Shown in pieces: positions 1 through 19,477 of a DNA stretch of 64,000 nucleotides. The notes beneath the pieces are model-generated. The model saw only the letters and a program-made list of their open reading frames with translations. It did not search any database and was not told the DNA's origin. Each line of letters begins with the position of its first letter. Position 1 is the stretch's first letter. Origin of the DNA: Amphirosellinia nigrospora (lineage: Eukaryota > Ascomycota > Sordariomycetes > Xylariales > Xylariaceae); contig SCHM01000003.1 in assembly GCA_004123355.1 (NCBI GenBank), positions 310,001-374,000 of the forward strand, written 5' to 3'. The position numbers and the translations under genes are program-made.

Positions 1-483
1 GAGGTATTACACTCTTGTGCACGTAACTATATAAAAATATCAAAGAACAATACTTAGCAGTTAGACCTCAACAATTTGAAGATAATGTTCGAAAATTCGT
101 TGAGGAATGTCGCGATGAGTCATAGTTCCACCATGTTCTTACCGAAATAGCGTTCTTAGAAATCCGAAAAGACGCCGATCCTATGGACCATGAGATAATC
201 CCCGTCGTCCTAACCGGAAACGATATAAGGCAATACTTAAATATCGTTCAAGTGTCCAACGTATTCCTAAAGTATCAAAATCAAAGCGCTCGGGAGTTAT
301 TCTTCAAACTAATAAAACGAATATATATAAGCAAGATTGACCACTCGACTATCAACAAAATCAAGGAATGCTACGAAAAGTTGGAGTTCAAGAGTAAAAT
401 ATCACTGCTTAACACGGAGACACATATACTCAACAGCATTGAAAAGATAAGAGATAATATAATTACTGCTGCCAGAGTACAAG
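1..483 (+). pseudogene. NLR N-terminal segment, domain not recognised
   Basis: Reading frame 3 is open on both sides of a stop at 108-110 and continues to 483, where the Gypsy element begins. The peptide is charged and probably helical (for example VRKFVEECRDES, then NDIRQYLNIVQVSNVFLKYQ). I cannot match it to HET, patatin-like, PNP_UDP, HeLo or other N-terminal effector domains from memory. It precedes the NACHT, where fungal NLRs carry their effector or signalling domain. The stop is a TAG that could be a mutated CAG. The true start is outside the window. Confidence 0.6.
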
Positions 484-841
484 TGTCACACGGACCTTGG
501 TTAGTGCGCAATACAGTGCCACACAGGGTCCCATACAGAGCTTGCGAAATATTGCCCTACGAGGCTATAGCAGTTATACGAAGTTATCGTAAATCTTAAA
601 AGCATATATCGAAGCTAAACTCGAACCCGATATATTCGCCTTACCGGCTATAAAGGTTTTATTTTCGGTCCTATAAAAAAAGAAAGGAAAAAAAAAGAAA
701 AAGAATTCTAAGCATAAATAAAGCTCGAATTTTCCCCTTAAAAAAAAAAAAAACTTAGATCAATATAGCCCCTTTAGTACTATAGTCATTTATTATTTAA
801 ATTAAACCTATTTTAAGCCTTTAAACAAAGCTTTTATAATA
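484..841 (+). repeat. 5' LTR of the Gypsy fossil
   Basis: The LTR aligns along its length with 7423-7781. Its first 150-200 bases keep a normal base composition while the inner part is AT-rich. It begins directly after the acaag target site. The open reading of the host NLR runs on into it by chance to 599. Confidence 0.9.
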
Positions 842-3800
842 GATAAACAACTTTTTATTAAAAGATTATTAATTCGATAAATATCTATTCTATTTATTTA
901 TTATATTACTTTTTTACCTTTTAACGCGTTATAGCAACTCAGCTAATTACTGCTTATACCGCTTAACGTGTTCGACTTTTTTTACCTTTCTTTGCGTTAG
1001 CTACCTACGTAGCAACTCTATATACGTTAACTGTTTACGCGCTAAGCTTTTATACGCTTATAACCCCGCAACTAAAACCTTAACTTTATCGCATAAATAA
1101 CTAGCTAATTATTTCTTATTTATACTTTAAACTCGCGAATCCTAGTCGCGATTAACAACTTTTAATTAAGTAATATCTTTTCCTTTTTTTATAACTAAGC
1201 AAAGCAGATCTTTTGCGGTTTTTATCGGAATTTATTTTTAAAACTTTATACTTTTTTAGGATTTTACACCTTTTTTGCAAGTTAACTTAGACGAAAAAAA
1301 TACTTCAGAAAAATCTAAAAAAAATACTTTTAAAAACAAATAAAACTAGGACTTAAACAAAGAACTAACTACCTAGCTATTTACTTATATTATAATTATT
1401 AATCCTTTATTTTTTATTCCGGAGATATTATATTAAATAATATTTTTTTATAAAAAACTTACTTAAAAGCTATTTTTTTAAAAGATTTTTCGGCCTTTTT
1501 TTTTTGCTTTTTTTTTTTACTTTTTTTTTAAAAAATGCTTTATTTTTAATAAAAAAAATTTAGAAATAAAAATTATATCTTAATATATTTATTCTTTTTA
1601 TTAAACCTAATTATTATAATATAAAAGCTTTATTAGAAATAAAAATATTATATTCGTTTTTTATAATTTTTAGGACTTTAAAATTACGCAATATTCCCGA
1701 TCTAGCTACTTTTAAAGTTATAATAAATAATTTTATTAACTAAATATTTTAATATATAAATAGCTTTATACTTTATATAACGTTATTTAAGATTTTTCCT
1801 AAAATATAAATTAGCAATATTATTAAAATTTAAGCAAATTATAAACGTAATATATATTATATAATAACTATTTAGCTATAATTTAGTTTTATATTATTTA
1901 AATTAAAATTTTAACTTAATAAATTGTTTGTTTTTAATAATAAATAGTTAAAGCTAGCTTTATTTTTTTTAATAAATTTAAAGAATTATTATTAAGTTTT
2001 TTTAAAACTTTAATAAATAAGTTTTAACTATTAATTAATTAAAAACTATAGCTTAATAATACTATAATATTTTTTTAACTTTAAAAAAAGATTTTTAATA
2101 TTAAAAGTTTTTTTAAACTAAAATAACTTAGTAAGCTAAAAAAAAAAAAAATAAATTAATAACTTTTTAGTATAAAATTATATTAATCTAGCTTAATTAA
2201 ATAATTATATATAGCGCTAGCTATAAAACTTATGGGCTTATATATAAGCCGCGTTATTAAAATTCTAAAATTAAGCAGTAATTAATAAAAACCTTAACGC
2301 CGATTTTATTATTAAAATTATTAGCTGTAAAACTGCTTTTTTTTATTTTTAGCTAAATATAAACTAGTATTTTGCGATAAATTTTTTTTAGTTCGTAGTT
2401 TTTAATTTTTGTTTAAAAGAATTATTATTTAATATTTTTTTTTAGCAATTTTAAATATAATATATTGCTAATAATATATATGTTTAATTTAATAAAGCTT
2501 ATACTAGCTTATTTATAACTAGTAGATTTAAAACATTATTAATAATAGAGGTACTAGTAGTAATAGCAGAGCTTTACCTCACAACTTTTTAAAATATCCT
2601 AGCTCGGATTTAGGAAATTTAAATAATAACTAAGGTACTTTGCGATTGTTATAAGTTGCTTTTTTGTAAGCCTTTTAATAACCGCCTTTTAGGATTTTTT
2701 AAAAGTACTAACAATTAGTTTTTTTATATTTTAAAAAAGCTAACTTTTATTTTAGCAATACGTTAATTAACCTAGTATATTTTAATAAACTTATTATGTT
2801 TAATAGTAAAAATCGCTTAAAGTTCTATGTATAATAACTTAAAATCGAATTTTATATAAAATTATACGCTAATAACTTTATATAAAACTACTAAAAAATT
2901 AACTAAATTAAATCGCTATTTATAAATAAAATATAAATTTAATATTAATAATATATAAAATAAATTAAAAATATTAGCTTAGCTAATAGTTAGGATATTT
3001 ATTTTATAGCTATAAAAAAATAATTTAAAGATTTTTCGGAAAAATATTATAATTCGAAAAAAATACTTAAGCTTAAATATAAAAGCAATACTATTTAATA
3101 TATTACTAAATTATTAAACTTTAACGAAAAAATTTAATAGTTTAATACTATTTTTTAAAACTATATTGTTTATATTTTTTTAATAAAATTATTAAATTAA
3201 TATATTTTAAAAAAATATATTTTTAAAAATAAATAAAGAATTTATTTTTATTATTTAAAAAATAGGACGAATTTACGAAAATATACTAATTAACCTTGGT
3301 TTTTTAAAACTTTAATAAAAAAAAGCGCGCTTATTTTAACCTTAAAGCTTTTAAAATTAAACTAATAGCAAAAAAAAATAGCTTTAATTTAGCTAAAATT
3401 AATCTTTAAAAAAAAAAACTTTAAAAAAATTTAAATAAAAAATTTAAATCGGATTTTAAAAAAAAACAATAATTTAATACTAAAAAATATTAAAAAATAT
3501 CGATTAAACTAATATTAATAAATAAAAAAATAAAAAAAAAATATATTAATGTTATAAAAAAAATAACTATTAAATTTTTATTTGCTACGCTAAAAAAATA
3601 TATAATAATAAAAAACTATTTATATTTTTAAAAAGATTTTATTTTTAAAATAAAAAAAAAAAAAAAACTCTTTAGCTTAATAAAGCTAAAAAAATAAAAA
3701 TTAACGCAATTATAATTTCGGCGTTATATTTTAAGCTAGAATTACTATAAGCAAAATATTTTATATTAGATTCTAAGTTAAATATAAACTTAAATCTAAC

Positions 3801-6800
3801 TTTTATACTAAAATTAATAAACTTTAAATTAGATTTTAATAAAGGTTTTTATAAAACAACGCATAAAAATTTTAACCTTTTTAGTTATAAAACTAGCGCT
3901 ATTAAGCAGTTACCTCTTAATAAACTAAAAAAATCTACTAATAAAAAATATTTAAAACTTTAAACTAGCTTATAATTTATTATTATTATAACTTTAATTT
4001 ATAACAATTAAAAATACTAAGTATAAATTCTATTAAATTATAAAAACATTATATTAATAATATTATTTTTAAAAGCTTAATAATAAAGTTATTTATATAT
4101 AAACGTATATATATACGTACTTTATAAGCTTTTAATTTAATGTTCGATAAATAAAATAGTAAATATTATATAAAACCTTTAGTTTTTTAATATTAAAAAA
4201 ACTATTTTACTTAATTTAATTTCGAACTAAATATTATAAAAAATTAAAATATTATTTTTTTTATTAATAGCTTTAATTATACTAGCTTATATATTTTTTA
4301 CAAATAACGTAAGCGAAATTATTTTTTTATCGGATTTTTATTTAAAATATTATACTAGTTTTAAAGTTACTTTTTTAATAAATTTTATATAGTTTAGCCT
4401 AAATATAATACTAGAACGTTTTTAAAAGTTTTTACTTATTATAATAAAATAAGCAATAAAACGTTTTCTTAATTATTAACCGTAAAATTATAAAATAGAT
4501 TTAAAAAAAAAACAACGCTTTTTTAAAGTTTTATATATTAATAATAAAAAACTAAAAGCACTTAAATTATAGCTTAATAAAATATTTAATACTAGTTATA
4601 TCTGTAAATTAATATTATTATACGGTATACTTTTTATATTTATCGATAAAAAAAACCTAGAAAATTTATTATAACTAATAATAAATTATTATAGCTTTAA
4701 TAAAATTACTATCTAAATTTAATATTTTATCTTTTTTATTACTAAACTATAAGCTTAGTTTAGATTGGCTAAATAGTTTATTAAAATTAATTTAAAATTA
4801 AAGTTCTATTTAATCCGAATTAAAAAAAGTTATAAATAAAAAATAGCTTTTAAATATAAATATAAGTTATTCGAATATACTATTATATTAATAAGTTTTA
4901 TTAATATACTATTTATTTTTTAAGCGCTAATAAATAATATTTTCCGCGATTTAATTAATATAAGTTTATTTATTTTTTAAACAATTTATTTATTTACGCA
5001 AATACTATAAAGAATAAATATATTAATATATAAATCTTTTAATAATTAATTTATTATAATTTTACAGTTATACTTTAAAAATACAAAAAACAATATAAAA
5101 TGTTAAGTTTTTAGGATATAATATTAATTTTTAAAGTATTATTATATTATAAAACAAAATAAACTGCGTTAAAATTAGCTATTTTTTAAAAATTTTAAAA
5201 AATATTAATAGTTTATTAGTTTTGCTAATTTTTATTATTATTTTATTTATTGGTTTTCCGCTATAGTTAAACTACTTATTAACGCTAATAAAATAAGCCG
5301 GTTAACCTAATAATAAACGCTAAAAATAACTAAGCGTATAAAACGCTAAAAATATAATTTATAACTATATTTATATTAGTATATTTTAACCCGAATTAAT
5401 TGCTTATATTAAAACAAACTTGTTGGATTTTATATTAAAAAAAATTTTTTTTTAAAAAAAAACCGATAAAAAATTATACTTAATCGCATTTTATTCTTAT
5501 AAATTAATGCTAGCAAAAATTAATTATAAAATTTATAATAAAAATTATTAATAATAATTAATTACTTTAATTAATAATATTATTACTTAAAAAAAACTAA
5601 ATACTACGTTAAAATTTATTCGGATTATTAAAATTTAGCATATTTTATTATAGCTAAGGTTTTAAACCATAAATAAACTAAATAATTATAATTATTAAAC
5701 TATTAGTTTATTATTAACTATAAATTAAAACGCTTAAACTAAAAAGCTAACGTTTTATCTAGATTGTTATAATATTATTCTAAAAAAAAAAGAATAAAAA
5801 CTAGCCGATAATTTTAGTTTTATAAAAAAAACATTTTTTTTACTTAAAAAAATATTATTTATAGAACAAAAAAAAATAATTTTCGCATTATTAGCGGCAA
5901 TACTAATAATATTAGTACTATTAACTAGTTTAATACCCTTTTAATAAACCTTTAACTTTATTAATAAAGTTAAGTTTATAAAAAAAAATAACCCGGAATA
6001 TTAAATATAATTAGCTAACCTAAGCAAAATATAAAAATATAAGATTAGTTTTATACTATAAAAAATAGTTATAAATATTTATTACGATCCGAAAAAAAAT
6101 CCTAGAATTAAAATATAATATTAAAATAACAATTATATAAAAATAAACAAAATATAAATTAATTACTCGAAACTTCTAATAGCTTAATTTATAAATAAAC
6201 GTACGTAGTTATATAACTAAATATTATAAATATTAAAAAAAAAAACCTACGCTACGCTTTATATAAACTATTATAGCTATTAAAGCTATATTATTTATTA
6301 TAATAATTTATAGCTATAGATTTTATTATAGATTTGCTGTTGTTTAATAATTATAACTTTATTTGGGCTATAATTAATTTTTTTATTAAAATAGCTTATT
6401 TTATACTATTTAAAATAAAAAAAAAAAAATAAAAATTTTATTAAAATTTTCGCGAAAGTTTACTAAAAAGTTTACGGAGTATTTTTAAACATTATATTTA
6501 ATAAATTCTAGGTTTATAGCGTATTTTTAAAAGGATTTTTTAAAACTTATTAGTATTTAAAACTAAATAAATATAGCTTTTTATTTATAAACGGATAAAC
6601 AAATAAAATAGCTTAATTAAATTTTTAAAATTTATTTATAAGTTTTTATTAATTATAAAATATTTAATTAAAAAATTTATTATTTATAGCCGAATTCGCT
6701 TATAATAATTTAATATTAATAACTATAAATATAATTTTTTTTATGCTAATTATAGCTATTACCTTATAATATATAACCTTTTAGTTATAACTATTTTACG

Positions 6801-7422
6801 TAATTTTAATAATTAGCTTTATGCTTATTAGATAATATAGGTTTATTTTAACGCGCAATAATACTTAGAAATTAATTACTAGCGAATAAAAAAATAAATA
6901 AACAAACAAAAAAAAAAGCTTTTATATATATTAAAAACTAGCTAATAATATTAAACGCTAAAAATATTAAAACTAAACGCCCCGCGAAAAAGCTAAATAA
7001 ATAATTATTAGAACTTTTTTAAATTTAAAAAATATTATTTTTTACTACTATTAAACTAATATTACTAAAGTCCTAATAAATTTATAACTTATTTTACGTT
7101 TTATTTATTAAACTTTTCTATTAAACTAATAATTAAAAACTTTTAATTTTATATAAATACTATAAAAAATAAAACTTATAAAAATAAAAACTATTAAATA
7201 AATATATTATAAATTTTTTAAAACCGAAAAATATATTAAATATTTAATTAAATAGTAAAGTTAGCTTGCTAAGAAATACTAAACTTAAGAACTTTATAAT
7301 TACTTTAATAACGAAAATATAAAAGCAAAAATAAAGCAATTTTATTAATATAACCCGGGCAAACCTATAAACTTACGCGCGCTTAAATAATTTAAAAGCA
7401 AATATTAAGAAAAAAAAGATAA

Positions 7423-7610
7423 TATTATATAGACCTTAGTTAGTACGTAATATAATACTATATAGGGTTTTATACGGAGCTCGCAAAATATTACCCTATA
7501 AAGCTATAATAGTTATATAAAGTTATTATAAGTTTTAAAAGCATATATTAAAGCTAAACTCGAACCCGATATACTTGCTTTACTAGCTACAAAAGTTTTA
7601 TTTTTCGGTC

Positions 7611-7644
<34 letters not shown>

Positions 7645-7781
7645 TTCTAAACATAAATAAAGCTTAAATTTTCCCCTCGAGGGAAAAAGGGGACTTAGAT
7701 CGATATAGCCCTTTTAGCACTATAGTCGTTTATTACTTAAATTGAACCTATTCTAAGCCCTTAAACAGAGCCCTTGTGACA
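7423..7781 (+). repeat. 3' LTR of the Gypsy fossil
   Basis: This is the mirror case of the 5' LTR. The inner, left part is strongly AT-rich and the last 100 or so bases are near normal. It ends GTGACA, followed by the acaag duplication at 7782-7786. A long A tract lies near 7616-7641. Confidence 0.9.
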
Positions 7782-7786
7782 ACAAG

Positions 7787-8906
7787 CACATAACTATAGT
7801 AATAAAGCGATCTAGTTTTGCCGACAAGTTAGATGCTTTATATGCTAATATATGTCAATAGAAGATTCCAATGCACAATCTTACCAATGCCTCATTAATC
7901 TGCGATTGACCGATCCCGAATTAGATAAGGAGCGTATCGAGTCCACAAAGGGTATGCTTCTAAAAGAATCATCCGCCTGGATTTTCCTAAACAAGGACTT
8001 TCGAAAATGGCGCGAAAACCAAGACGGGCGGCCACTCTGGCTCACGGGTGACGCTGGGAAGGGCAAAACTATGCTCCTCTGTCACATCGTTGACGAGTTG
8101 AGCAATCCACACACAAGAGACAGCTTGGTTTCCTATTTCTTCTGTCAGGCTACGGACGAAAAATTGAACAACGCCACGGCTGTACTTCGAGGTCTCATCT
8201 ACATGCTCATTAAGCAGGACAACACATTGTTAGAATGTGTCTACAGCGAGTATAAAACTCTGGCAAGAATCTTTTTACAGATATCAACGCTGAGGTATCG
8301 CTACTTCGGATTCTCGGGAGCCTACTGCAAAACCGCGGATCAAGCAAACTCGTGTTCATAATCGATGCACTTGATGAATGCTCGGAGGGTCTGGGCTCTT
8401 TCCTCAAATTCGTTGGCAAGCATTCTGGCACTAGCCAAGTCAAGTGGCTAGTCTCAAGTCGCAATTTACCGCACATTGAAGAGGCACTTGCCCAGTTCAA
8501 TCAACTGAGCCTCGAACTCAACCAGGGGTCTATATCTGCAGCTGTAGGCTTTTATATTCAACAGAAGGTCGATGACCTACAATACAAAAAACGATTCAAG
8601 AATGATGTACGGGAAAAGATCATATCTTCTCTAACCGAGAAAGCGGAAAATACTTTCTTATGGGTAGCTCTGGTTTCCAACGAGCTTGAGAATGCTCCTC
8701 GCCGAAACCTGCTAGCCCAGCTCGAACGATTCCCGGCGAGTCTGGACAGATTATACAAGACAATGATGGACACCATTAACGATTCTGCAGATCATGAATT
8801 ATTTCACACTATCCTTGCGATAATCTCCGTTGTATATCGACCGATAAGCCTACTAGAGCTGTATACGCTCCTTGGAGACTCGTAACGAAACTATATAGAT
8901 GTGGAC
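7787..8906 (+). pseudogene. NLR NACHT ATPase segment
   Basis: From 7852 the peptide shows the linker typical of fungal NACHT proteins (LRLTDPELDKERIESTKGML), then Walker A (WLTGDAGKGKTMLL near 8038-8080), a frame break near 8260-8290, Walker B (FIIDALDECSEG from 8355), a sensor-like WLVSSRN, and the winged-helix part ending YRPISLLELYTLLGDS. A TAA follows at 8883-8885, possibly a mutated CAA or CAG. The reading then stays open to the tggac target site at 8902-8906. Between 7787 and 7852 there are two in-frame stops. Nucleotide composition is normal, although the segment is sandwiched between two AT-rich elements. Confidence 0.88.
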
Positions 8907-9116
8907 TATCACGGATAAGTAGGTCTATGGTGAGCCCTAGGACTGGGGCTCGCCCTAACTATAGTCCGAGTGATCGTTTACTATATATAGGATTTTAATA
9001 TACTTATCTAAGTATATAAAACTTTTACTTAAATTATTTAAATATATTTTATTTAAGCTTTTTTAAAAAGTACACTAGTTTATTTTATACTAGATTATAT
9101 TTATAAATATATAATA
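8907..9116 (+). repeat. 5' LTR of the Copia fossil
   Basis: The LTR aligns with 16404-16617 through shared blocks such as AACTATAGTCCGA. The first 80-90 bases are of normal composition and the rest is AT-rich. The start is fixed by the tggac duplication immediately to its left. Confidence 0.88.
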
Positions 9117-12100
9117 ATTATAAGCTTAGTTCGCTAAAACTAATGCTTTATTTTTTTAAAACGAAAACTACTAAAGCAAACTTTTATAATTTTATTTTAT
9201 TTTTAAACTTTATTAAATTATAGCGCGATTACTTTAAATATTATTTAATTAATTAAAAATATTAACTAAAAAAACTATTATTAAAAACGCGCTTTTTTAA
9301 ATACTTATAAACTATTTTATAAATTATTAAGCTATAATTTTACGCTAAAATTTACGAAATATAAAAACTAATTAACCTAAATAAATTAAATTTAATTTAT
9401 TAGCTAAAATATATACTTAAATTCTTATAAAAAAACTATAATAATCGAACTTAATAAACAATAAAAAAAAAGCATTAAATAGTTTATAAAGCTTAATTAA
9501 ATATATTTTTTATAGCTAAAATATTTATTAAGCTAAAACTACTAGCTTTTACAAACGATATAAAAATTATTTATAAATATTAAAATTAGCTTAAAAATTT
9601 TTTATAGTTTTAGCTATATATCTAACTAAACTAATAAATATAACGTTTTATTTATATAAATATAAAAAACTATATTACTAAATATATTTAATTTAATAAT
9701 TATTTAGCTAATTATATATAAAATAATTAATTTATAAGCTTTTATAAAAGCTATTAAAAACTTTTTAGTATTTATAAAATTAGCTTATTAGTTCTATATA
9801 TAATAAACTTATAAAAAACGCTTAAATAAATTATTTTTAAAAAAATTAAGCTAAAAAAATATATACTAAATAATATAAAGTATATTTATAAGCACGAATG
9901 CTAAATTTGTTTAAATTATAAAATATTTATAATAAAAATTTCTTAAAAACTATTAAAATAAAAATAATTCTTAACTAAATACGCTAAAAGCTCGTAAAGC
10001 TTATAAAAAACAAATAGTTAAAAAACCTATAATAATTATAGAATAGTTTAATAAAGTTTTTTAAACTTTAGTTTACTAAAAATTATACGTAATAAATATA
10101 ATAATAGCAAGATTTTTATAATAAAAAAAAAATCTAATAATTAATTAAAGAACTTATAAAAAAGCCGAAATAAATTTATTAAAAAGTAAATTAAATAAAT
10201 ATTTTTACCTTTATATTTTAAATATTAATAATATTTATAAGTAGATTTATAAAAATATAAGCGTTTTTAAAAAGTAGTTATAAGCTTTACGAATTTTAAA
10301 ATTAAAATATTTTTATTTAATAAGATTTTTAAAATTAAAACTAAATAAAACTATAACGCTAAAAAAAACTACGCGCTAAAATCGAAAAAAAAAGCTAAAA
10401 AGTTTAAAATTATAAATACAAACGCTTTATTTATAAAAATTAAACAATAATAAATAGCTAAAGCTTAACCTAGCTTATATAATAATTAATAAAGCTTTTA
10501 TAAAAAACTCTTAATTAACTTAAAAATTTATATAATATTAAAATATATTTATTATATATTTTCCGAAAATATAATATTAAATAATTATAGCATTATATAT
10601 TTAATTAATAATAAAAATCTCTTAGTATAAAGTTTATTAGTGTTTTTTTAAAAAAAGATTTTATAAACGTAAATACTATATTTTTTTTATTTTTAGTAAA
10701 AGTAAAAAATTATTAAAAACGTATTTTTTAGCGCTAAAAAAAACAATATAAAAAATTTAACGCTTAAAAACGTAATATTAATAGAAAAGTTCTATATAAA
10801 TATAGTTTTAAAAGTTTAATTTAAAAACATAAAAATCTAATATTATAAATATAATTATTTTTTATTTTAAAAATATTTAATAAATATTATAATAAAATTT
10901 TTTATTAGAATATAACTTAGTTTTTTTTAAATATAGCCCTATTTTTATTTATTTAAATAAATTATTAATAATTAATAATATATTTAAAAAGATTATTATA
11001 AATGCTGCTAGAATAATCGCTACTATTTAAAACTTTTTTTAATACGTATTTTAAAAACTTTAATAAAACCCGTAAATATTAAAAAGTTATAGCACTTAAA
11101 ATTAAAGCATTTAAAACCAAAATTATTAAAAGTTTAGTCTATATAACTCGAAGTATTAAAATTAAAAAAACAAAAAAAATAAATTATAAAATATATACTA
11201 AGGCGTATATAAAAAGCGTTATTTATATAAACTATTAAATAGCGCGTAGCGCAGCTATTCTAAAAAATTAATTAAAATTTATTTGACTATTTTAAAAAGT
11301 ATAATAAAATATTCTAGCTATTTAAGATTAAAAATAAATATAGCAAAATAATTTATATTTTATTTTAGTATAAAAAACTAAAATAATAATATTTATTATA
11401 TTATGCTAGTTTAAGCGCTAAATAATATATTAGTATAAGTTTTTATATATAAAATATAATAATAAAAAACTACAATAATTATTAGCAAAAGTTTTATTAA
11501 TTTTTAGTACTAAAAAATTATAATATTAATATTAAAATATTTTTAAACTATATAAAAAAGCCCGTAAGTAAAAAAAAAAATAAGCTAGAAAATTATATTA
11601 AAAGCTTTAAAAATACTTTAAAAAATAGGACTATTTAAAAAGCTTTAATTAAAAACAGTTTATAAAGCTTTATAATTATATAATAAAAGCTTTTTAAAGT
11701 TTATAATTTTTTTTTTTATAAAAATTTTTTAACTAGTTTTAGTATTATTTCTAATAATATATACTAAAAATAATAATTAGCCGAATAATAAATCTACGGC
11801 TAAATTAAAGCATAATTTAAACATATAGCTATAAAAACATACTTAGTAAAAAAAAATAAGTTTATAAGCAAATAAGTATAATATAAAGTATAAATATATA
11901 TAGTTAATTTACGCGCTTATATTAAATATTTAATAAGTTAAATAACTTTTAATTTATTTAAATATAAATTTTTAATTAAATAAATAATTATTATATATAA
12001 CGTTATATTTAATAAAGAAATTTTCTATATATAAAAAATAAAAAAACTAGCTATTAAAATTAACTAAAAATTATTATAATAAATTATTATAAAAAAACTT

Positions 12101-12949
12101 ATATTAAAAAATTTATTAAATATAATTAATATATAAAAAATAACGTAACTAATATATTTTAAAAAAAACGCTAATATCTTTAGCGAAATTAAAAATAATT
12201 TTATAACTATAAACTTATTGCTTAAAAACTAACTAAAAAAATATAAATTAAAAATAAAATCGCTTAAATAGTTTAAAAAATAAATTAAAAAATATTTAAA
12301 AGCTTATAAAAATTAAACGCTAAAACTTTTAATTTTTTAATAAATATTAACCCAGAATAGCAACTTATTAAAGCAAAAAATAATTTAAATTAGCTAATAT
12401 ATTAAAAGTAATTTTATAAATATAAAAACGATTTTAAATATAATTAAACTAATAAATAATAATCTTTGATTTTTTTATAAAATATATTTAATAAATCTAA
12501 AAATAACCGAAAACGCGTAAAAAAACCTAGCTAAAGATTATATAGTAGTAAGCGGGTACCCAGCTTAAAACCTAAATATTAATAAAATTTTTATATAAAA
12601 AATAAGATTTAATTAAAAAATTAAAAAAAAGCTTTTTAATTATAAAGTTAGAAGTAAAAAAAAAAATTAATATAATTTTCTGCTTTTATTAAACAGATCT
12701 ATAAAAATTAAAAATTTATTATTCCCGATAATTATAATTAGTCTAACTTTTTATTAACTTTTATACTTAATTAACTAAAAACAATATATAAAAAAAACTA
12801 AAAGTATAAAATATTATATATAATAATCGTAACAATAATGCATTAAAATAAAACAAAATACTTTAAGGCTATACCTTAGCAGCCCAAAATTTATAAAAAC
12901 GATTTTTTTAAGCTATTTCTAAAAATATAAAAAGATTTAACTAAATATT

Positions 12950-13154
12950 AGTTACGGGTAGTGGCCAGCCAAGTGGCTGGTGCCACAGCACCCGCAATCC
13001 CTGTGGCTGTGGCCCCTGCGGGGCCACACCACAGTATTTAGCTCGGAACCTGCTGCGCAGGTTCCTCACATACACACTCCTTCCTTACTTGTAGATTCAG
13101 TACAAATAAACACTATTTTGGAGCCACGCCTTCTATTTTGTGTAAAGTGCAACA
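12950..13154 (-). mobile_element. Solo LTR nested in the Copia fossil
   Basis: A 205-base island of normal GC content lies inside very AT-rich sequence. It is flanked by the 5-base duplication atatt (12945-12949 and 13155-13159). Read on the minus strand it starts TGTTGCAC and ends CCCGTAACT. It holds two strong GC palindromes (around 12964-12985 and 13008-13032). The 5-base duplication, TG start and length fit a solo LTR that arrived after the host element was mutated, or that was too short to be hit. The ending in ACT rather than ACA is unusual. Confidence 0.7.
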
Positions 13155-14755
13155 ATATTTATTAAAAAATCGATTTAAAAACAATACTTCTAAAAAAATT
13201 ATAAACTTTTAATAGCTTAAAGTAATAAAACTTATACTACGCTATAAAGCTAAATACAACCTATTATTTTTAAAATAAATATTTATATATAAATTTAATA
13301 AAAAAAAGTATTTAAACGTATATAAAACTTATTTAATAGTTTAAAAAAATTTTTAATATAAAAATATGCTTTAATTAATATATATTACTATACTTATAGC
13401 TAAAACGTTTAAAATTATAATAGCTATAGCTATATAATTTAATTTAAAAATAAAATAGTTTAATATTATTAGCGCATTTTTAAACGTTTCTAAAAAAAAA
13501 AAAACGTTTATAGCGTATAAATTATTTAATAGCTTTAAACAAAAAAACATAGTAACGCTGCTTATAAAAGCGCTATATAGTTTAAAAAATTATTACTACT
13601 ATAATATAATAAATTCTTAAGCATTTTAAAAAACTTTAGCTTAATCTTATTACTAAAAAAACCTTATTTATTCTATTTAAAAATCGTAAAATATATAATA
13701 TTTTATATAAATAATTTTTAATATTATATTATAAAAAGCATAAAAAAAAAGCTAAAAAATAATTAATAAAATTAAAAAACATATAAATTTAAAAAATAAA
13801 AAAATATATTAGTTTTTAAAAATAAAAATAATTAAAAACTATAAAGCTAAAACGCTTATATTATTTTATAATTAATATATTAAAAAAATCGTATAGCGCT
13901 ACAAGCTAAATAATAATAGCTAGATCTTAATAATCCTTTTATTATTTAAAAAGTTAAAAAAATATTTAAAATAAACTATTAAAACTTAAATTAAAGCATT
14001 TTAAAAACACGTAAAGTTTATTTTATATATTATTATTATAATCTAGCTAAATATAACTTTCGCGGCTATTTAATTATTTAAATATTTTATTAATTTAAAT
14101 TTAAATTATTTAGCTATAACTAATTAAATAATTAAATATTTATACTATATAAATATTTAAATATTATTTATAAATAATATAAATAAAGCGCCTAAATATT
14201 TTTATAATAAAAATATTTTATTTAACAATAATAAAAAAATATAAAGATTATTTTACAAGTATATTATTTTTTATTTAACGGAATAATCGTTTAAAAAGCT
14301 ATTTAATAAAATATAATATTTATTTTAACTATTAAAGCCGAAATTAATATTATAAGCCTAATAAAATAAAAACTATAATATTAAAAAAGCTTTTTAAAAA
14401 TATATAACTAAAGCTTTATTAAAAATAAACAATTTATTCGGATAATATTTAAACGATCCGCTTAGTTATAAAAAAAAATAAACGAATTAATATTTAGCTA
14501 CGCTATATAAATATATAAAATATATAAATTAAACAAAAATATTATAAAAGTTTTTTTAAAATTATATATTTAACTATAAATTAAATACTAATTAATAAGC
14601 TTACTAAAAATTTACTATAAATATAGTTTAAGCATTTTTATACGTTTATTAATTTATAAATATATATTATTTAGTTTATAATAATTAAGCAAGCTAATTA
14701 ATATATAAAAATTATTTTATTGTTTAGCTAAAGCTTTAAAAAAAATTATATAATT

Positions 14756-14970
14756 TGTCACGATTGGTGTCCTTTACAGAGGCAAAGCTCCTAGTTGGGG
14801 TCCCATTTGTATATTGATCGAGAGATACTAAGCTAGATCTAGGATCTAGCGGCTAATTCTATCTATAGGGATTTTGTGTGTGTGCACGGTGGGGCTGATC
14901 ATGTGACTCTAGGTGGGTCCCTGCGGGACCCACTGTATCTGTATCCGTATCTGGTCAGCCACCCGTGACT
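14756..14970 (+). mobile_element. Second solo LTR nested in the Copia fossil
   Basis: This 215-base island of normal composition is flanked by taatt (14751-14755 and 14971-14975). It starts TGTCACG and ends CCCGTGACT, giving a terminal inverted match GTCACG/CGTGAC. It contains the palindrome GGTGGGTCCCTGCGGGACCC followed by ACTGTATCTGTATCCG. The ending resembles that of the island at 12950-13154, which suggests related families. The alternative is a small non-autonomous element. Confidence 0.7.
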
Positions 14971-16064
14971 TAATTTTAAAAATTATAAAGCTATATTTTA
15001 GCTAAATTTATATTCGTTTAACTAAACTATAATAAATTTATTAAACTTTAAATAATAGTTTAAATCTATTTTTAATTAATATTAAAAGCTAAAAAAGCTT
15101 GCGGGCCAGGGGTAAAAAAAGCTTATAAAGCAAGGGCGGAAATAATAATAACAATAGTAATAAAAGCAAATATACTAACAAACTTAGCAATAAAAATTAT
15201 TTAAATAACCTAAATAATAATATAAAAGCTATAAATATTTTTTCGCTAATAGTTTATATTAATATAAAAATATTAAACTAATATTTAATAAAGCTTAAAC
15301 TTATAATAACGTTATTATTTATTTATTTCGAAAATAATTATTAAACGTACTATTAATAGTATAATATATAGCTTATTATATTATAATTATATTAATATAT
15401 TTTAAAAATTTTTAGCAGTTTATATAAAAATTTATAAAGTAATAAATATACCTAGAAGTATATTTATAATATTTTATATTGCGCGCCGCGTTATAATAAA
15501 CGCTCGAAAAGCTGCCCGTAAAAGCTAAAATAAAATACGCTATATATAAAACAGTATAATAGCCGGCGCGATCGGAACAGCGGCAAGTAGCGCGCGCGTA
15601 ATATAGTATTGCTAGCTTACTAAAATCATTATTAGCAGGAGAAAAAATAGTAATAAATTATTATTATTAGTATTAATAGCGCGCTAAATAATAATAATAA
15701 TAGCGTTTATAATAGTAATATATTAAACGTAAATTAATAGCTTTTTTAATAGCTAAATAAAATAATAAAAATTATATAAATTGTTTAAAAATAAGCTTAA
15801 GCTAGCGTTAACATTAGTAATAACGGATATAATAATAATAATAATAATTAGTTTTATTTAAAATTAGTTTATAAAAATAACAATCGGTAATTTTTAACTA
15901 TTAACTTAAACGCTAAAATAACGCTATATTTTTAAAAAAAAATTTATTTATAAAAAAAAAATCTTATAATTATTTTTATACTAATATATAAATATATATT
16001 AATATATATTACTAAAAACGGTAAATTAGTCCTATTTTATTTATAAAAATAAAATAATTATAAG

Positions 16065-16098
<34 letters not shown>

Positions 16099-16403
16099 TA
16101 AAAATAATAAATAATATAAACTTACGCGCTTTTATACAAATATTAGCTTATAGCCTTATTACTTATTAAATAAACAAACAAATATAGCATCGTAACTTTT
16201 GCTAATACTTTAATAGCTAGCAAAACAAGTTAAAAAAATAAAATATTATAAAATATACGCTTTTAAAATATTTAAAATATTTACGCTAGCATTTATAACT
16301 AAAGCTTACGCTATAATAAATTAATAAAATATTATTAATATTTTTTTATTATATAGTTAACTTATAGCTTCGAAACTTTAAATAGCTTTAAAACTAAAAA
16401 ATA

Positions 16404-16617
16404 TATTACAAATAAATAAATTTATAATAAGCCTTAAAAACTAAAGCTTGCTTTAACTATAGTCCGAATAATCGTTTATATATATAAAATTTTAATATAC
16501 TTATCCTAAATATATAGAACTTCTACTTAAAATTATTTAAATATATTTTATTTAAGCCCCTCTAAAAAGTGCACTAGTTCACTTCTTATGCTAGATCGTA
16601 TCTATAAATACATGACA
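16404..16617 (+). repeat. 3' LTR of the Copia fossil
   Basis: The left part is AT-rich and the final 60 or so bases are near normal, ending ATGACA. It is followed at once by tggac (16618-16622) and the in-frame NLR coding sequence. Confidence 0.88.
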
Positions 16618-16916
16618 TGGACCATGTAAGTGATCTAAGGCATCTTGTCCATGAGTGTGGCTCCCTTCTGACAGTCCAAGGGGTCACTGTCTACTTTGTT
16701 CATCAGTCAGTGAAAGAGTATCTAACTAACAATGAGGCTCATACTATTTTCCCCGACTGTACGGGAACCACACATTTCTCAATCTATTCTAGATCGATAA
16801 AAGCCCTGTCTAATGGTCTTCGACGCGACATATATGATCTGAAGGACCCAGGTATCTCTATTGACGATATCCAAATACCCAGCCCTGATCCGCTAACTCG
16901 CCTGCGATATTCCTGT

Positions 16917-17061
16917 TGCCAGGAACAGGGATCAGAGACCAGTTAGACAAAGAGACTCCTCGTATATAGCCATATAGTCACGTAGAGCTCACGGAGATGA
17001 CTTCACTGGTCCTCTGTGCAACAACAGATGTTTACACCCTACCCTTGCGAGGATCGTGACA
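16917..17061. mobile_element. Short solo LTR inside the NLR coding sequence
   Basis: The protein reads RYSC up to 16916 and resumes as IH-x-TDHLEY from 17067, matching the uninterrupted motif of related NLRs. The 145 bases between start TG (tgccagg) and end CA (gtgaca), and are flanked by cctgt on both sides (16912-16916 and 17062-17066). These are the marks of an LTR-type insertion reduced to one LTR. Composition is near normal. Which family it belongs to is unknown. Confidence 0.7.
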
Positions 17062-17532
17062 CCTGTATACATTAGACTGATCATCTCGAATATGGGAGAC
17101 ACCAACGAACCTAAAGCCTGAAGGAGACTTACAAGATGGTGGGGCTGTACAGCAGTTTCTAGAAAAAACTATCTGCCTTGGTTAGAATCGCTGAGTCTCC
17201 TCAGAGATGTTCCAAAAGGAATTTCTTCCATGATTCAACTATCACGGCTACTTGACGTATGTACTGATACGATGCATACATATATACTAGGAACTAATAG
17301 ATAACAGGGCCACAACGAGTCGAAGGTGTTCGCTGAACTAGTATATGATGCCCTGAGATTTGTCCAATCTCACAATGCCGTGATTACGCAAAGTCCACTT
17401 CAGGTATACACCTCAGCGCTTATATTCAGCCCCAAATCCAGTATGATACGGTGCCTGTTCCAAAAAGAGGAGCCTGAATGGATAGCGCAAAAGCCAATTG
17501 TGGAAAATACATGGAACGCCTGTTTACAAACG

Positions 17533-19060
17533 CTCGAGGGCCACGAAGGCACAGTGAATTTAGTAATATTCTCCCCTGATAGCAAGATCGTCGCCTCCAG
17601 ATCAGATGATTCGGTACGTCTCTGGTCGGTCGAGACCGGCACGTTACTATTCAAGCTCAAATGCGATTCCCGTGACGATTTTATATCAATGACATTCTCA
17701 CCGGATAGCAAGGTTGTGACCACGATATCACACCCGTATATCATAGAGTATTGGTCAGCCGAAACAGGCGAGTTGCAAAGCTCACACAAGCCTCTTATTT
17801 GGGACTACATCCTCTCAGCGGCATGGTCGCTTGACGGCAGCATCGTTGCCTTCGGCTTAGCCGACCATACAATACGGCTTTGGTCAACCATCAAGACACA
17901 AGCGTTACTCCATGTACTTAATGGCCATAGTGATCAGATTAACTCAATGGCGTTTTCGCCTGACGGTAAGACTGTGGCGTCGGGCTCAGCGGACTCGACA
18001 ATGCGACTCTGGTCAACCGAGACGGGCGCGCTATCGTTCACGCTCAGACCCTATATGAACGACAAAGTTCGGTCGGTAGTATTCTCGCCCGATGGCAAGC
18101 TTGTGGGCATCTTATTATGGAATACGGTACGGATTTGGTCGTGCGAAATGGGAACGCTACAGAATACGTTTATACGTGACTTTGACAACTTATCCGTAGC
18201 GTTTTCACCGGATAGCAAGGTCATAGCGTCAGGCTCAGGGTTCCCTGGCACGGTCCAGCTTTGGTCGGCCGAAACAGGCGAATTATGGCAAAAACTCGAA
18301 GGTCATAGGGACACGGTCCAATCAATAGCATTCTCACCCGATGGCAAGGTCGTCGCCTTGGCAGCGAGCGATAATACAGTACGGCTTTGGTCAACCGAGA
18401 CAGGCTTACTACGACACGCGCTTAAGCCCAGCTTTGATTTTGCGCCCGACTTTATTATATTCTCGCCCAATAGCAAGCTCGTAGCCTCGACCTGCAACCA
18501 AGTAAAGATTTGGTCAGTTGAAGCGGGCAAACTACTATACACACTTGGACATGATAGTGTCTTTGACTCGGCGGCGTTTTCTCTTGATAGTACAGTTATA
18601 GCTGCGGTGTCAGAGGGCAAGTCAATCCAACTCTGGTCAACCGAAACGGGCTTATCACAACATAATATCATATTTCCAGAAGTTCCTTATCACGACCCCA
18701 AAAGATCGGTAATATTCTCATCCGACGGCAAGATTGTGGCTTCGATATCGTATGGGGTTGTACGGCTCTTGTTAACCGAAACGGGCGAGCCACGACACAC
18801 AATCGAAGTTGATAGTGGATTAGTTACCTCAATAGCTTCTCGCCCGATGGCAAGGTTATAGCGTTGGGCTTAGAATATAGAAGTACGGTACAGCTTTGGT
18901 CGGTGGAAACCGGGACGTTGAAGCAAACGCTCAACGGCGTCGGCTATTCATTCCTCTGCTGTTGCTGTAGCGTTCTCGCCCGACGGCAAGATTATAGCCT
19001 TGAGTTTGGACAACTGGACATTGCGGCTCCTGTCCACTGAAACGGGCCACTGTTTTCTAT
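17533..19060 (+). repeat. Tandem WD40 repeats in the NLR gene
   Basis: About 12 units of 40-43 residues follow each other. The core pattern is FSPDGKxVASGSxDxTxRLWSTETG, clear in units starting near 17533, 17920, 18298 and 18960. The encoded beta-propeller would be the ligand-recognition end of the NLR. Units have diverged from one another (some lack the GH dipeptide or the WD-type end), unlike the near-identical repeats of highly variable incompatibility genes, so recent unit shuffling is not evident. The last two units are split by frame breaks. Confidence 0.85.
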
Positions 19061-19477
19061 CAATTGACATTGGCATTATCTCTCGCAATATTTCCTTTTC
19101 ACGAGATAGCCAATGTCTGTTTATTGATACCGGTTGCATCTCTCTCAGCTATTCATGTCAACAGGCATTATCCGCCCCATCTACTGTCATCGATGCTACA
19201 CCCCCGTCGATTGCAATCAATATTCCCTCATCGGATATGGAATCAGCACAGGTCTTTCGTGGTAACTTTAAATGGAAAAGAATTGTTATGGTTACCAGCA
19301 GAATATCGACCCCGAGAATTTGGGGCTACGCGCTCTATAATAATTTCTGGCTCTACTATAGTATTTCCTTGCGCATCGGGAAGACTCGTTTTTTTGCGGT
19401 TTTCGCCACAAGGACCGCCTGGTATTGCAGTACACAAGGAGAAGGGAACCGAAAAAGGAAGAACCCTGGTGGAATGA

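What the first reader, a model, noticed from the sequence alone, without database searches (positions are those of the whole stretch)
1..19477. One fungal NLR gene taken apart by three separate LTR insertions
The host coding sequence can be followed through a Gypsy element (acaag duplication), a Copia element (tggac) and a 145-base solo LTR (cctgt). In each case the host sequence resumes next to the 5-base duplication, and at the two sites within conserved blocks the protein motif resumes exactly. NACHT-WD40 genes are known allorecognition and defence loci; such repeated hits in one gene suggest a relaxed or disfavoured allele, or a locus in a transposon-prone region.
Basis: partly seen in the sequence, partly recalled or inferred. 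Interest (0 to 1): 0.7.

Follow-up and report, generated by a model that had tools for sequence, protein, structure and literature searches.

The report
Dead fungal immune gene with transposons
A fungal immune-receptor gene has been broken by three jumping-gene insertions, two of which were later heavily mutated in the way fungi mutate repeats, leaving a fossil of a well-known kind rather than a new system.

Summary
Three LTR insertions split a NACHT-WD40 (NLR) gene: 484-7781 (duplication ACAAG), 8907-16617 (TGGAC) and a 145-bp solo LTR, 16917-17061 (CCTGT), all duplications exact. Codon phase is kept at the second and third sites, where a paralogue in the same genome is uninterrupted. The gene also has stops and frame changes beyond the inserts: a dead pseudogene. 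Not established: that the N-terminal piece (1-483) belongs to this gene (no relative found in the genome), and the names Gypsy and Copia (no RT match in the window). None of 20 other NLR-like loci, about 3.3 kb each, has RIP-like composition. RIP-killed NLR genes and a transposon-interrupted heterokaryon-incompatibility gene are in print (PMC1805685, PMC5915480, passages seen). Ordinary genome decay, low interest. An LTR-only family met on the way may deserve a look.

The parts
1..483 (+). Host piece 1, perhaps the end of an N-terminal domain that starts upstream of the window (in L009). Has in-frame stops. Membership in the gene is inferred.
   Evidence: Frames; no Pfam domain over its cut-off; no other match in the genome
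484..7781 (.).
   Evidence: LTR alignment; TSD ACAAG (479-483 and 7782-7786); RIP gradient; internal GC 0.154, CA/TA 0.05
7787..8906 (+). Host piece 2: NPHP3_N/NACHT ATPase domain, frame change near 8260, in-frame stop 8883-8885; 8902-8906 is the left TSD of the next insertion
   Evidence: NPHP3_N 2.6e-22 and 3.1e-7, NACHT 3e-8; frames
8907..16617 (.).
   Evidence: LTR alignment; TSD TGGAC; LTR spacing minus nested inserts 7068 bp against 7061, 7035 and 7031 bp in three other pairs
12950..13154 (.). Nested solo LTR A, 205 bp, GC 0.53, TSD ATATT (ends placed with the help of the TSD)
   Evidence: 22 genome matches, fragments included; two same-strand pairs 6.5-6.6 kb apart and one 13.8 kb apart
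14756..14970 (.). Nested solo LTR B, 215 bp, GC 0.49, TSD TAATT (ends placed with the help of the TSD)
   Evidence: 41 genome matches; four same-strand pairs 6.6-6.9 kb apart, three others at 2.5, 13.8 and 14.2 kb
16618..16916 (+). Host piece 3: region after NACHT (weak winged-helix matches, below cut-off), in phase with piece 2
   Evidence: 48% identity to paralogue residues 61-152; phase; weak matches
16917..17061 (.). 145-bp solo LTR, TSD CCTGT (16912-16916 and 17062-17066)
   Evidence: 123 genome places match its core; 29 of 31 examined copies with exact TSD
17067..17304 (+). Host piece 4a: linker to the WD40 repeats, with an in-frame stop at 17073-17075 just after the insertion; probable intron at its end (by eye)
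   Evidence: frames; 17122-17304 frame 39% identical to the paralogue over 38 residues
17305..19477 (+). WD40 repeats (518-codon open frame, 7 WD40 matches) and probable C-terminal tail; frame changes near 18840 and between 18922 and 19040, and by eye between 19150 and 19260; end at 19477 by eye
   Evidence: WD40 2.2e-52; frames; the tail gave no BLAST match to the paralogue

Best explanation
This is a dead NACHT-WD40 (fungal NLR) gene. Shown: two full-length LTR elements and one 145-bp solo LTR lie in it, each flanked by an exact 5-bp duplication, and two more solo LTRs lie inside the second element. Shown: the long elements carry the C-to-T/G-to-A signature of repeat-induced point mutation (RIP) - tested by composition for both and base by base for the first, where it fades towards the host junctions - while host pieces 2-4 and the solo LTRs keep ordinary GC. 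Inferred: solo LTRs escape because they are shorter than the repeat length RIP needs, and host pieces because they are single copy. Inferred: the copy decayed as a non-functional NLR. Whether an insertion killed it or it was already dead is not known, nor the order of the three host insertions; only the nesting inside the second element is ordered.
For: Exact TSDs at the three host insertions and the two nested ones. LTR pairs. Relatives of every LTR elsewhere. Three other pairs of the second family have spacings 7031, 7035 and 7061 bp; the window pair has 7068 bp once nested inserts and their duplications are subtracted. Paralogue uninterrupted at sites 2 and 3, codon phase kept. RIP: CA/TA 0.05-0.07 inside the elements against 0.69-1.11 in host pieces; against an unmutated LTR of the first family, 61 forward and 4 reverse transitions with 7 transversions in the 5' LTR, and 84, 4 and 12 in the 3' LTR (sums). 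Stops and frame changes in host pieces.
Against: Piece 1 has no homologue that ties it to the NACHT part and is more AT-rich (GC 0.37, TG/TA 0.40), so mild RIP leakage or another origin is possible there. RT-domain searches matched neither long element. The nearest paralogue has frame breaks itself. The short nested LTRs give uneven RIP indices (A: TA/AT 1.57; B: CA/TA 0.53). One other pair of second-family LTRs is 16.2 kb apart. Some frame changes could be introns or assembly errors.
Confidence: 0.92

Rival explanations
1. The interrupted copy is a null allele of a live allorecognition or immunity locus: intact alleles segregate in the species, and loss in this strain is tolerated or favoured.
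For: The WD40 frame is still open for 518 codons and host pieces 2-4 are not RIP-like, so death may be recent. Pyrenophora teres has TE-interrupted genes, a heterokaryon-incompatibility gene among them, with intact forms reported (PMC5915480, passages). One Podospora NWD pseudogene is intact in some strains (PMC12222747, passages).
Against: Several lesions besides the inserts. No population data. The closest paralogue is also broken, as general turnover would give.
Confidence: 0.15
2. The locus, or NLR genes in general, is an insertion hotspot.
For: Three insertions in about 4.3 kb of host sequence, plus two in the second element. Under a uniform rate with 636 first-look LTR candidates, 0.44 five-kilobase bins with three or more hits are expected genome-wide; with 204 copies 0.015 (rough).
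Against: With 1908 copies the same estimate gives 10.8 such bins. 20 of 20 other NLR-like loci show no RIP-like composition. First-family LTR matches lie in 3 of those 20 loci and in 4 of 29 loci around other 145-bp copies. Dead DNA collects insertions without any hotspot.
Confidence: 0.1
3. Piece 1 is a separate gene or relic, and the first element lies between two genes rather than inside one.
For: No Pfam domain over cut-off and no other match of piece 1 in the genome. No similar frame was seen before the NACHT part of the paralogue (by eye).
Against: Same strand, directly beside the LTR, exact duplication. Fungal NLRs vary greatly in domain organisation (abstract of PMC12258605).
Confidence: 0.3

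Closest known systems
NWD pseudogenes NWDp1, NWDp2 and NWDp3 of Podospora anserina (PMC1805685, passages seen)
   Same: NACHT-WD40 genes disabled: NWDp1 and NWDp2 by RIP; NWDp3 lies beside a transposon relic.
   Different: There RIP hit the NLR gene itself, sparing the WD repeats; here RIP is seen in the inserted elements, and the gene is cut by LTR insertions.
Transposon-interrupted genes of Pyrenophora teres, a heterokaryon-incompatibility gene among nine (PMC5915480, passages seen)
   Same: Allorecognition-type gene split by transposon insertion (169-6514 bp) in a RIP-affected genome.
   Different: There intact forms are reported for comparison; here no second strain could be tested, and there are three insertions plus two nested.
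RIP-mutated transposons as AT-rich blocks, e.g. Aspergillus flavus (PMC9910759, passages seen)
   Same: LTR elements turned AT-rich by C-to-T change.
   Different: No difference in kind seen.

Membership tests
Fungal NLR of the NACHT-WD40 (NWD) type | NACHT/NPHP3_N STAND ATPase domain | tested here: met
   NPHP3_N 2.6e-22 and NACHT 3e-8, both over the curated cut-off
Fungal NLR of the NACHT-WD40 (NWD) type | C-terminal WD40 repeats | tested here: met
   WD40 2.2e-52, 7 stretches
Fungal NLR of the NACHT-WD40 (NWD) type | NACHT and WD40 parts collinear in one stretch of DNA in a relative | tested here: met
   Pieces 2, 3, 17122-17304 and the start of the WD40 frame match L012 in order, though in several frames of a broken paralogue
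HNWD (HET-E/HET-D) subfamily | N-terminal HET domain | tested here: not met
   No HET match in the N-terminal pieces searched
HNWD (HET-E/HET-D) subfamily | Nearly identical WD repeats | tested here: not met
   Four copies of an 89-nt unit are 63-71% identical to the reference copy (family D1)
LTR retrotransposon | Paired LTRs flanked by a short target duplication | tested here: met
   for the two long elements
LTR retrotransposon | Reverse transcriptase and integrase domains (needed for the names Gypsy or Copia) | tested here: inconclusive
   No RVT_1 or RVT_2 match inside the window; the elements are RIP-saturated; integrase was not searched
Repeat-induced point mutation | Directional C-to-T/G-to-A change with CpA/TpG depletion in repeats | tested here: met
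   Composition of both elements; direction tested on the first element's LTRs
Repeat-induced point mutation | Active RIP in a sexual cross of this species | not testable with these tools
   Species unnamed; needs an experiment

The most novel reading that the evidence does not exclude
The third insertion belongs to a 145-bp LTR-like family with 123 places matching its core and no full-length element seen among the copies examined. It could be an LTR-only unit, moved in trans or formed by very fast LTR-LTR recombination, that stays below the length RIP can detect and so spreads unmutated through a RIP-scarred genome.
Probability: 0.1. Interest if true: 0.5.

Novelty: new member of a known kind. 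Interest (0 to 1): 0.15.

Why it matters
It is a clear example, partly ordered by nesting, of how a fungal NLR gene decays: insertions, RIP in the long repeats, short solo LTRs and single-copy host pieces largely unmutated. It adds a case rather than a principle. Its main use is as a marker: the empty sites can be looked for in other strains to ask whether the receptor is still alive in the species.

Tried and rejected
RNA families in the window: none at gathering thresholds. RVT_1 and RVT_2 over the genome to confirm Gypsy and Copia: no match inside the window. Solved-structure searches of NACHT and N-terminal pieces: no match or weak ones only. PADLOC on N-terminal pieces: one 48-residue piece matched PDC-S35 weakly (15.4 bits, E 0.0022, and a second PDC-S35 model at 0.021), not pursued. 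The idea that same-strand neighbours of the 145-bp family are LTR pairs of a 2-kb element was rejected for the two neighbour pairs read: each of the four copies in L083 and L084 has its own duplication. The idea that NLR loci in general are hit was not supported. LTR divergence was not used for dating because RIP distorts it.

The control sets are loci already held: 20 NLR-like loci (best matches to NACHT or to the window pieces, hence biased to recognisable ones, one of them the paralogue) and 29 loci around other 145-bp copies. One search was run with a query shifted by 5 bases (16922-17066); the borders were corrected afterwards. first gave a wrong right border for the second element (duplication not matching); one search corrected it by six bases. 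The spacing 7019 printed and the uncorrected spacings are replaced by those.
Full report
The finding covers its first 19.5 kb.

Insertions. Three LTR insertions lie in host sequence, with exact 5-bp duplications: 484-7781 (ACAAG), 8907-16617 (TGGAC) and 16917-17061 (CCTGT). Three of three exact duplications have a chance of about 1e-9; I do not add the nested two to that figure because their ends were placed with the help of the duplications. The paired LTRs of the two long elements align with each other. Relatives recur in the genome: 40 scored matches of 267 first-look candidates for the 145-bp LTR, 40 of 54 for the second element's LTR, 41 matches (315 candidates) for an unmutated relative of the first element's LTR taken from L009, 41 and 22 matches, fragments included, for the nested ones. 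These lists are capped. In the second family four other same-strand pairs are listed. With LTR starts corrected, three have spacings of 7061, 7035 and 7031 bp and one 16,203 bp; the window pair has 7498 bp, or 7068 after subtracting the two nested inserts and their duplications. This independently supports both the element and the nesting.

Host gene. Pieces match NPHP3_N/NACHT and WD40 repeats above the curated cut-offs; the region between has only weak, below-cut-off winged-helix matches. The nearest paralogue (C8:1,290,016 on; 53% and 46% identical in the two searches) has one open frame through the places of sites 2 and 3. BLAST puts piece 2 at residues 1-48 of that frame (33% identity) and piece 3 at residues 61-152 (48%), ending at the last residue before the third insertion. 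The twelve residues between, and the 19 residues directly after site 3, were not aligned by BLAST; the resumption after site 3 was matched by eye. The next host frame (17122 on) matches again (39%). Codon phase is kept across both sites. At site 1 no such test is possible: the piece before it has no Pfam domain over cut-off and no other match in the genome. So NACHT to WD40 is shown, and the N-terminal piece is inferred.

Death. Besides the inserts there are in-frame stops (8883-8885, 17073-17075, and in the N-terminal piece) and frame changes near 8260, near 18840 and between 18922 and 19040; another between 19150 and 19260, and the gene end at 19477, were judged by eye. The tail gave no BLAST match to the paralogue. 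An intron just before 17305 is likely, by eye, and other breaks could be introns. The paralogue shows frame breaks too.

RIP. Internal parts of the two elements have GC 0.13-0.18 and CA/TA 0.05-0.07. Host pieces have GC 0.37-0.47 and CA/TA 0.69-1.11, piece 1 being the lowest (GC 0.37, TG/TA 0.40). The 145-bp and nested solo LTRs have GC 0.49-0.53, with uneven indices because they are short (nested A TA/AT 1.57, nested B CA/TA 0.53). Against an unmutated solo LTR of the first family in L009, which has its own duplication CTTAC, the window LTRs show 61 forward against 4 reverse transitions (7 transversions) and 84 against 4 (12 transversions). Forward changes fall to 4 and 3 in the bins (60 and 53 bases) at the two host-facing ends, against 8-20 per 60 bases elsewhere. 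That is the RIP pattern; direction was tested on the first element only. PMC1805685 (passages) states that RIP acts on linked repeats over 400 bp or unlinked ones over 1 kb; that this explains the spared solo LTRs here is inference.

Context. Of 20 other NLR-like loci held (about 3.3 kb each), none has RIP-like composition (GC 0.44-0.49, CA/TA 0.88-1.46). First-family LTR matches lie in 3 of these 20 and in 4 of 29 loci around other 145-bp copies. A uniform-rate estimate gives 0.015, 0.44 or 10.8 five-kilobase bins with three or more hits for 204, 636 or 1908 copies, so three hits in one dead gene may be uncommon but need no special cause. The estimate ignores clustering.

Literature (passages unless stated). 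RIP-killed NWD pseudogenes, and one beside a transposon relic, in Podospora anserina (PMC1805685). A heterokaryon-incompatibility gene among nine genes interrupted by transposons in Pyrenophora teres (PMC5915480). In Sordariales, NLR number correlates only weakly with RIP and repeats (PMC12258605). One NWD pseudogene proved intact in some strains (PMC12222747), which keeps the segregating-allele rival open. Searches were made; no listing or passage I saw describes this locus, but with the species unnamed it could not have been recognised by name.

Side observation. The core of the 145-bp family (28 bases, up to two mismatches) matches 123 places, the reversed control none. Of 35 copies examined, 33 have an exact 5-bp duplication and 2 differ by one base (29 of 31; 4 of 4 in L083 and L084). 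A copy with its own duplication on both sides is solo. Among the 100 places listed of 123, four same-strand pairs lie 1-16.5 kb apart, at 1.5-3.9 kb; where duplications were read (both C4 copies and one of the three C1 copies, L047) each copy has its own. The second-element and nested families do show pairs at 6.5-7.1 kb, besides a few at 2.5 or 13.8-16.2 kb; the first family was not tested for pairs. The 145-bp family may simply have lost its full-length parents, or these may be RIP-mutated beyond the search.

Verdict.

Noticed in passing
G000-wide; L031-L060, L009:114-257, L083, L084: A 145-bp TG..CA unit whose core matches 123 places; 33 of 35 examined copies have an exact 5-bp duplication and 2 differ by one base; no full-length parent was seen.
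   Followed up: partly
L009:900-6630 (C5:300.9-306.6 kb), just upstream of the window: Biotin-synthesis genes side by side: bioB-like, bioF-like (minus strand), bioD- and bioA-like, all fragments below the curated cut-offs, spread over several frames: introns or decay, not resolved.
   Followed up: partly
G000 contig C9 (1.33 Mb): 20 of 41 listed RVT_1 matches fall on this contig, under 3% of the assembly; 13 of the 20 have no stop inside, some are neighbouring fragments. It may be a repeat-rich or accessory chromosome with less RIP.
   Followed up: no
G000 contigs C1 and C4: Five RVT_1 matches with identical scores (99.2 bits) and open frames of 757-1075 codons suggest a recently active family not mutated by RIP, in a genome with RIP-saturated elements.
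   Followed up: no
L012 and L082 (C8:1.290-1.295 Mb): The nearest NLR paralogue has frame breaks itself, and a split copy of the same 145-bp LTR lies about 0.3 kb beyond its last frame.
   Followed up: partly
L009:9701-10000 and window 27-482: The possible N-terminal domain upstream of the first insertion has no Pfam match over cut-off; one 48-residue part matches a candidate bacterial defence family weakly (PDC-S35, 15.4 bits).
   Followed up: partly
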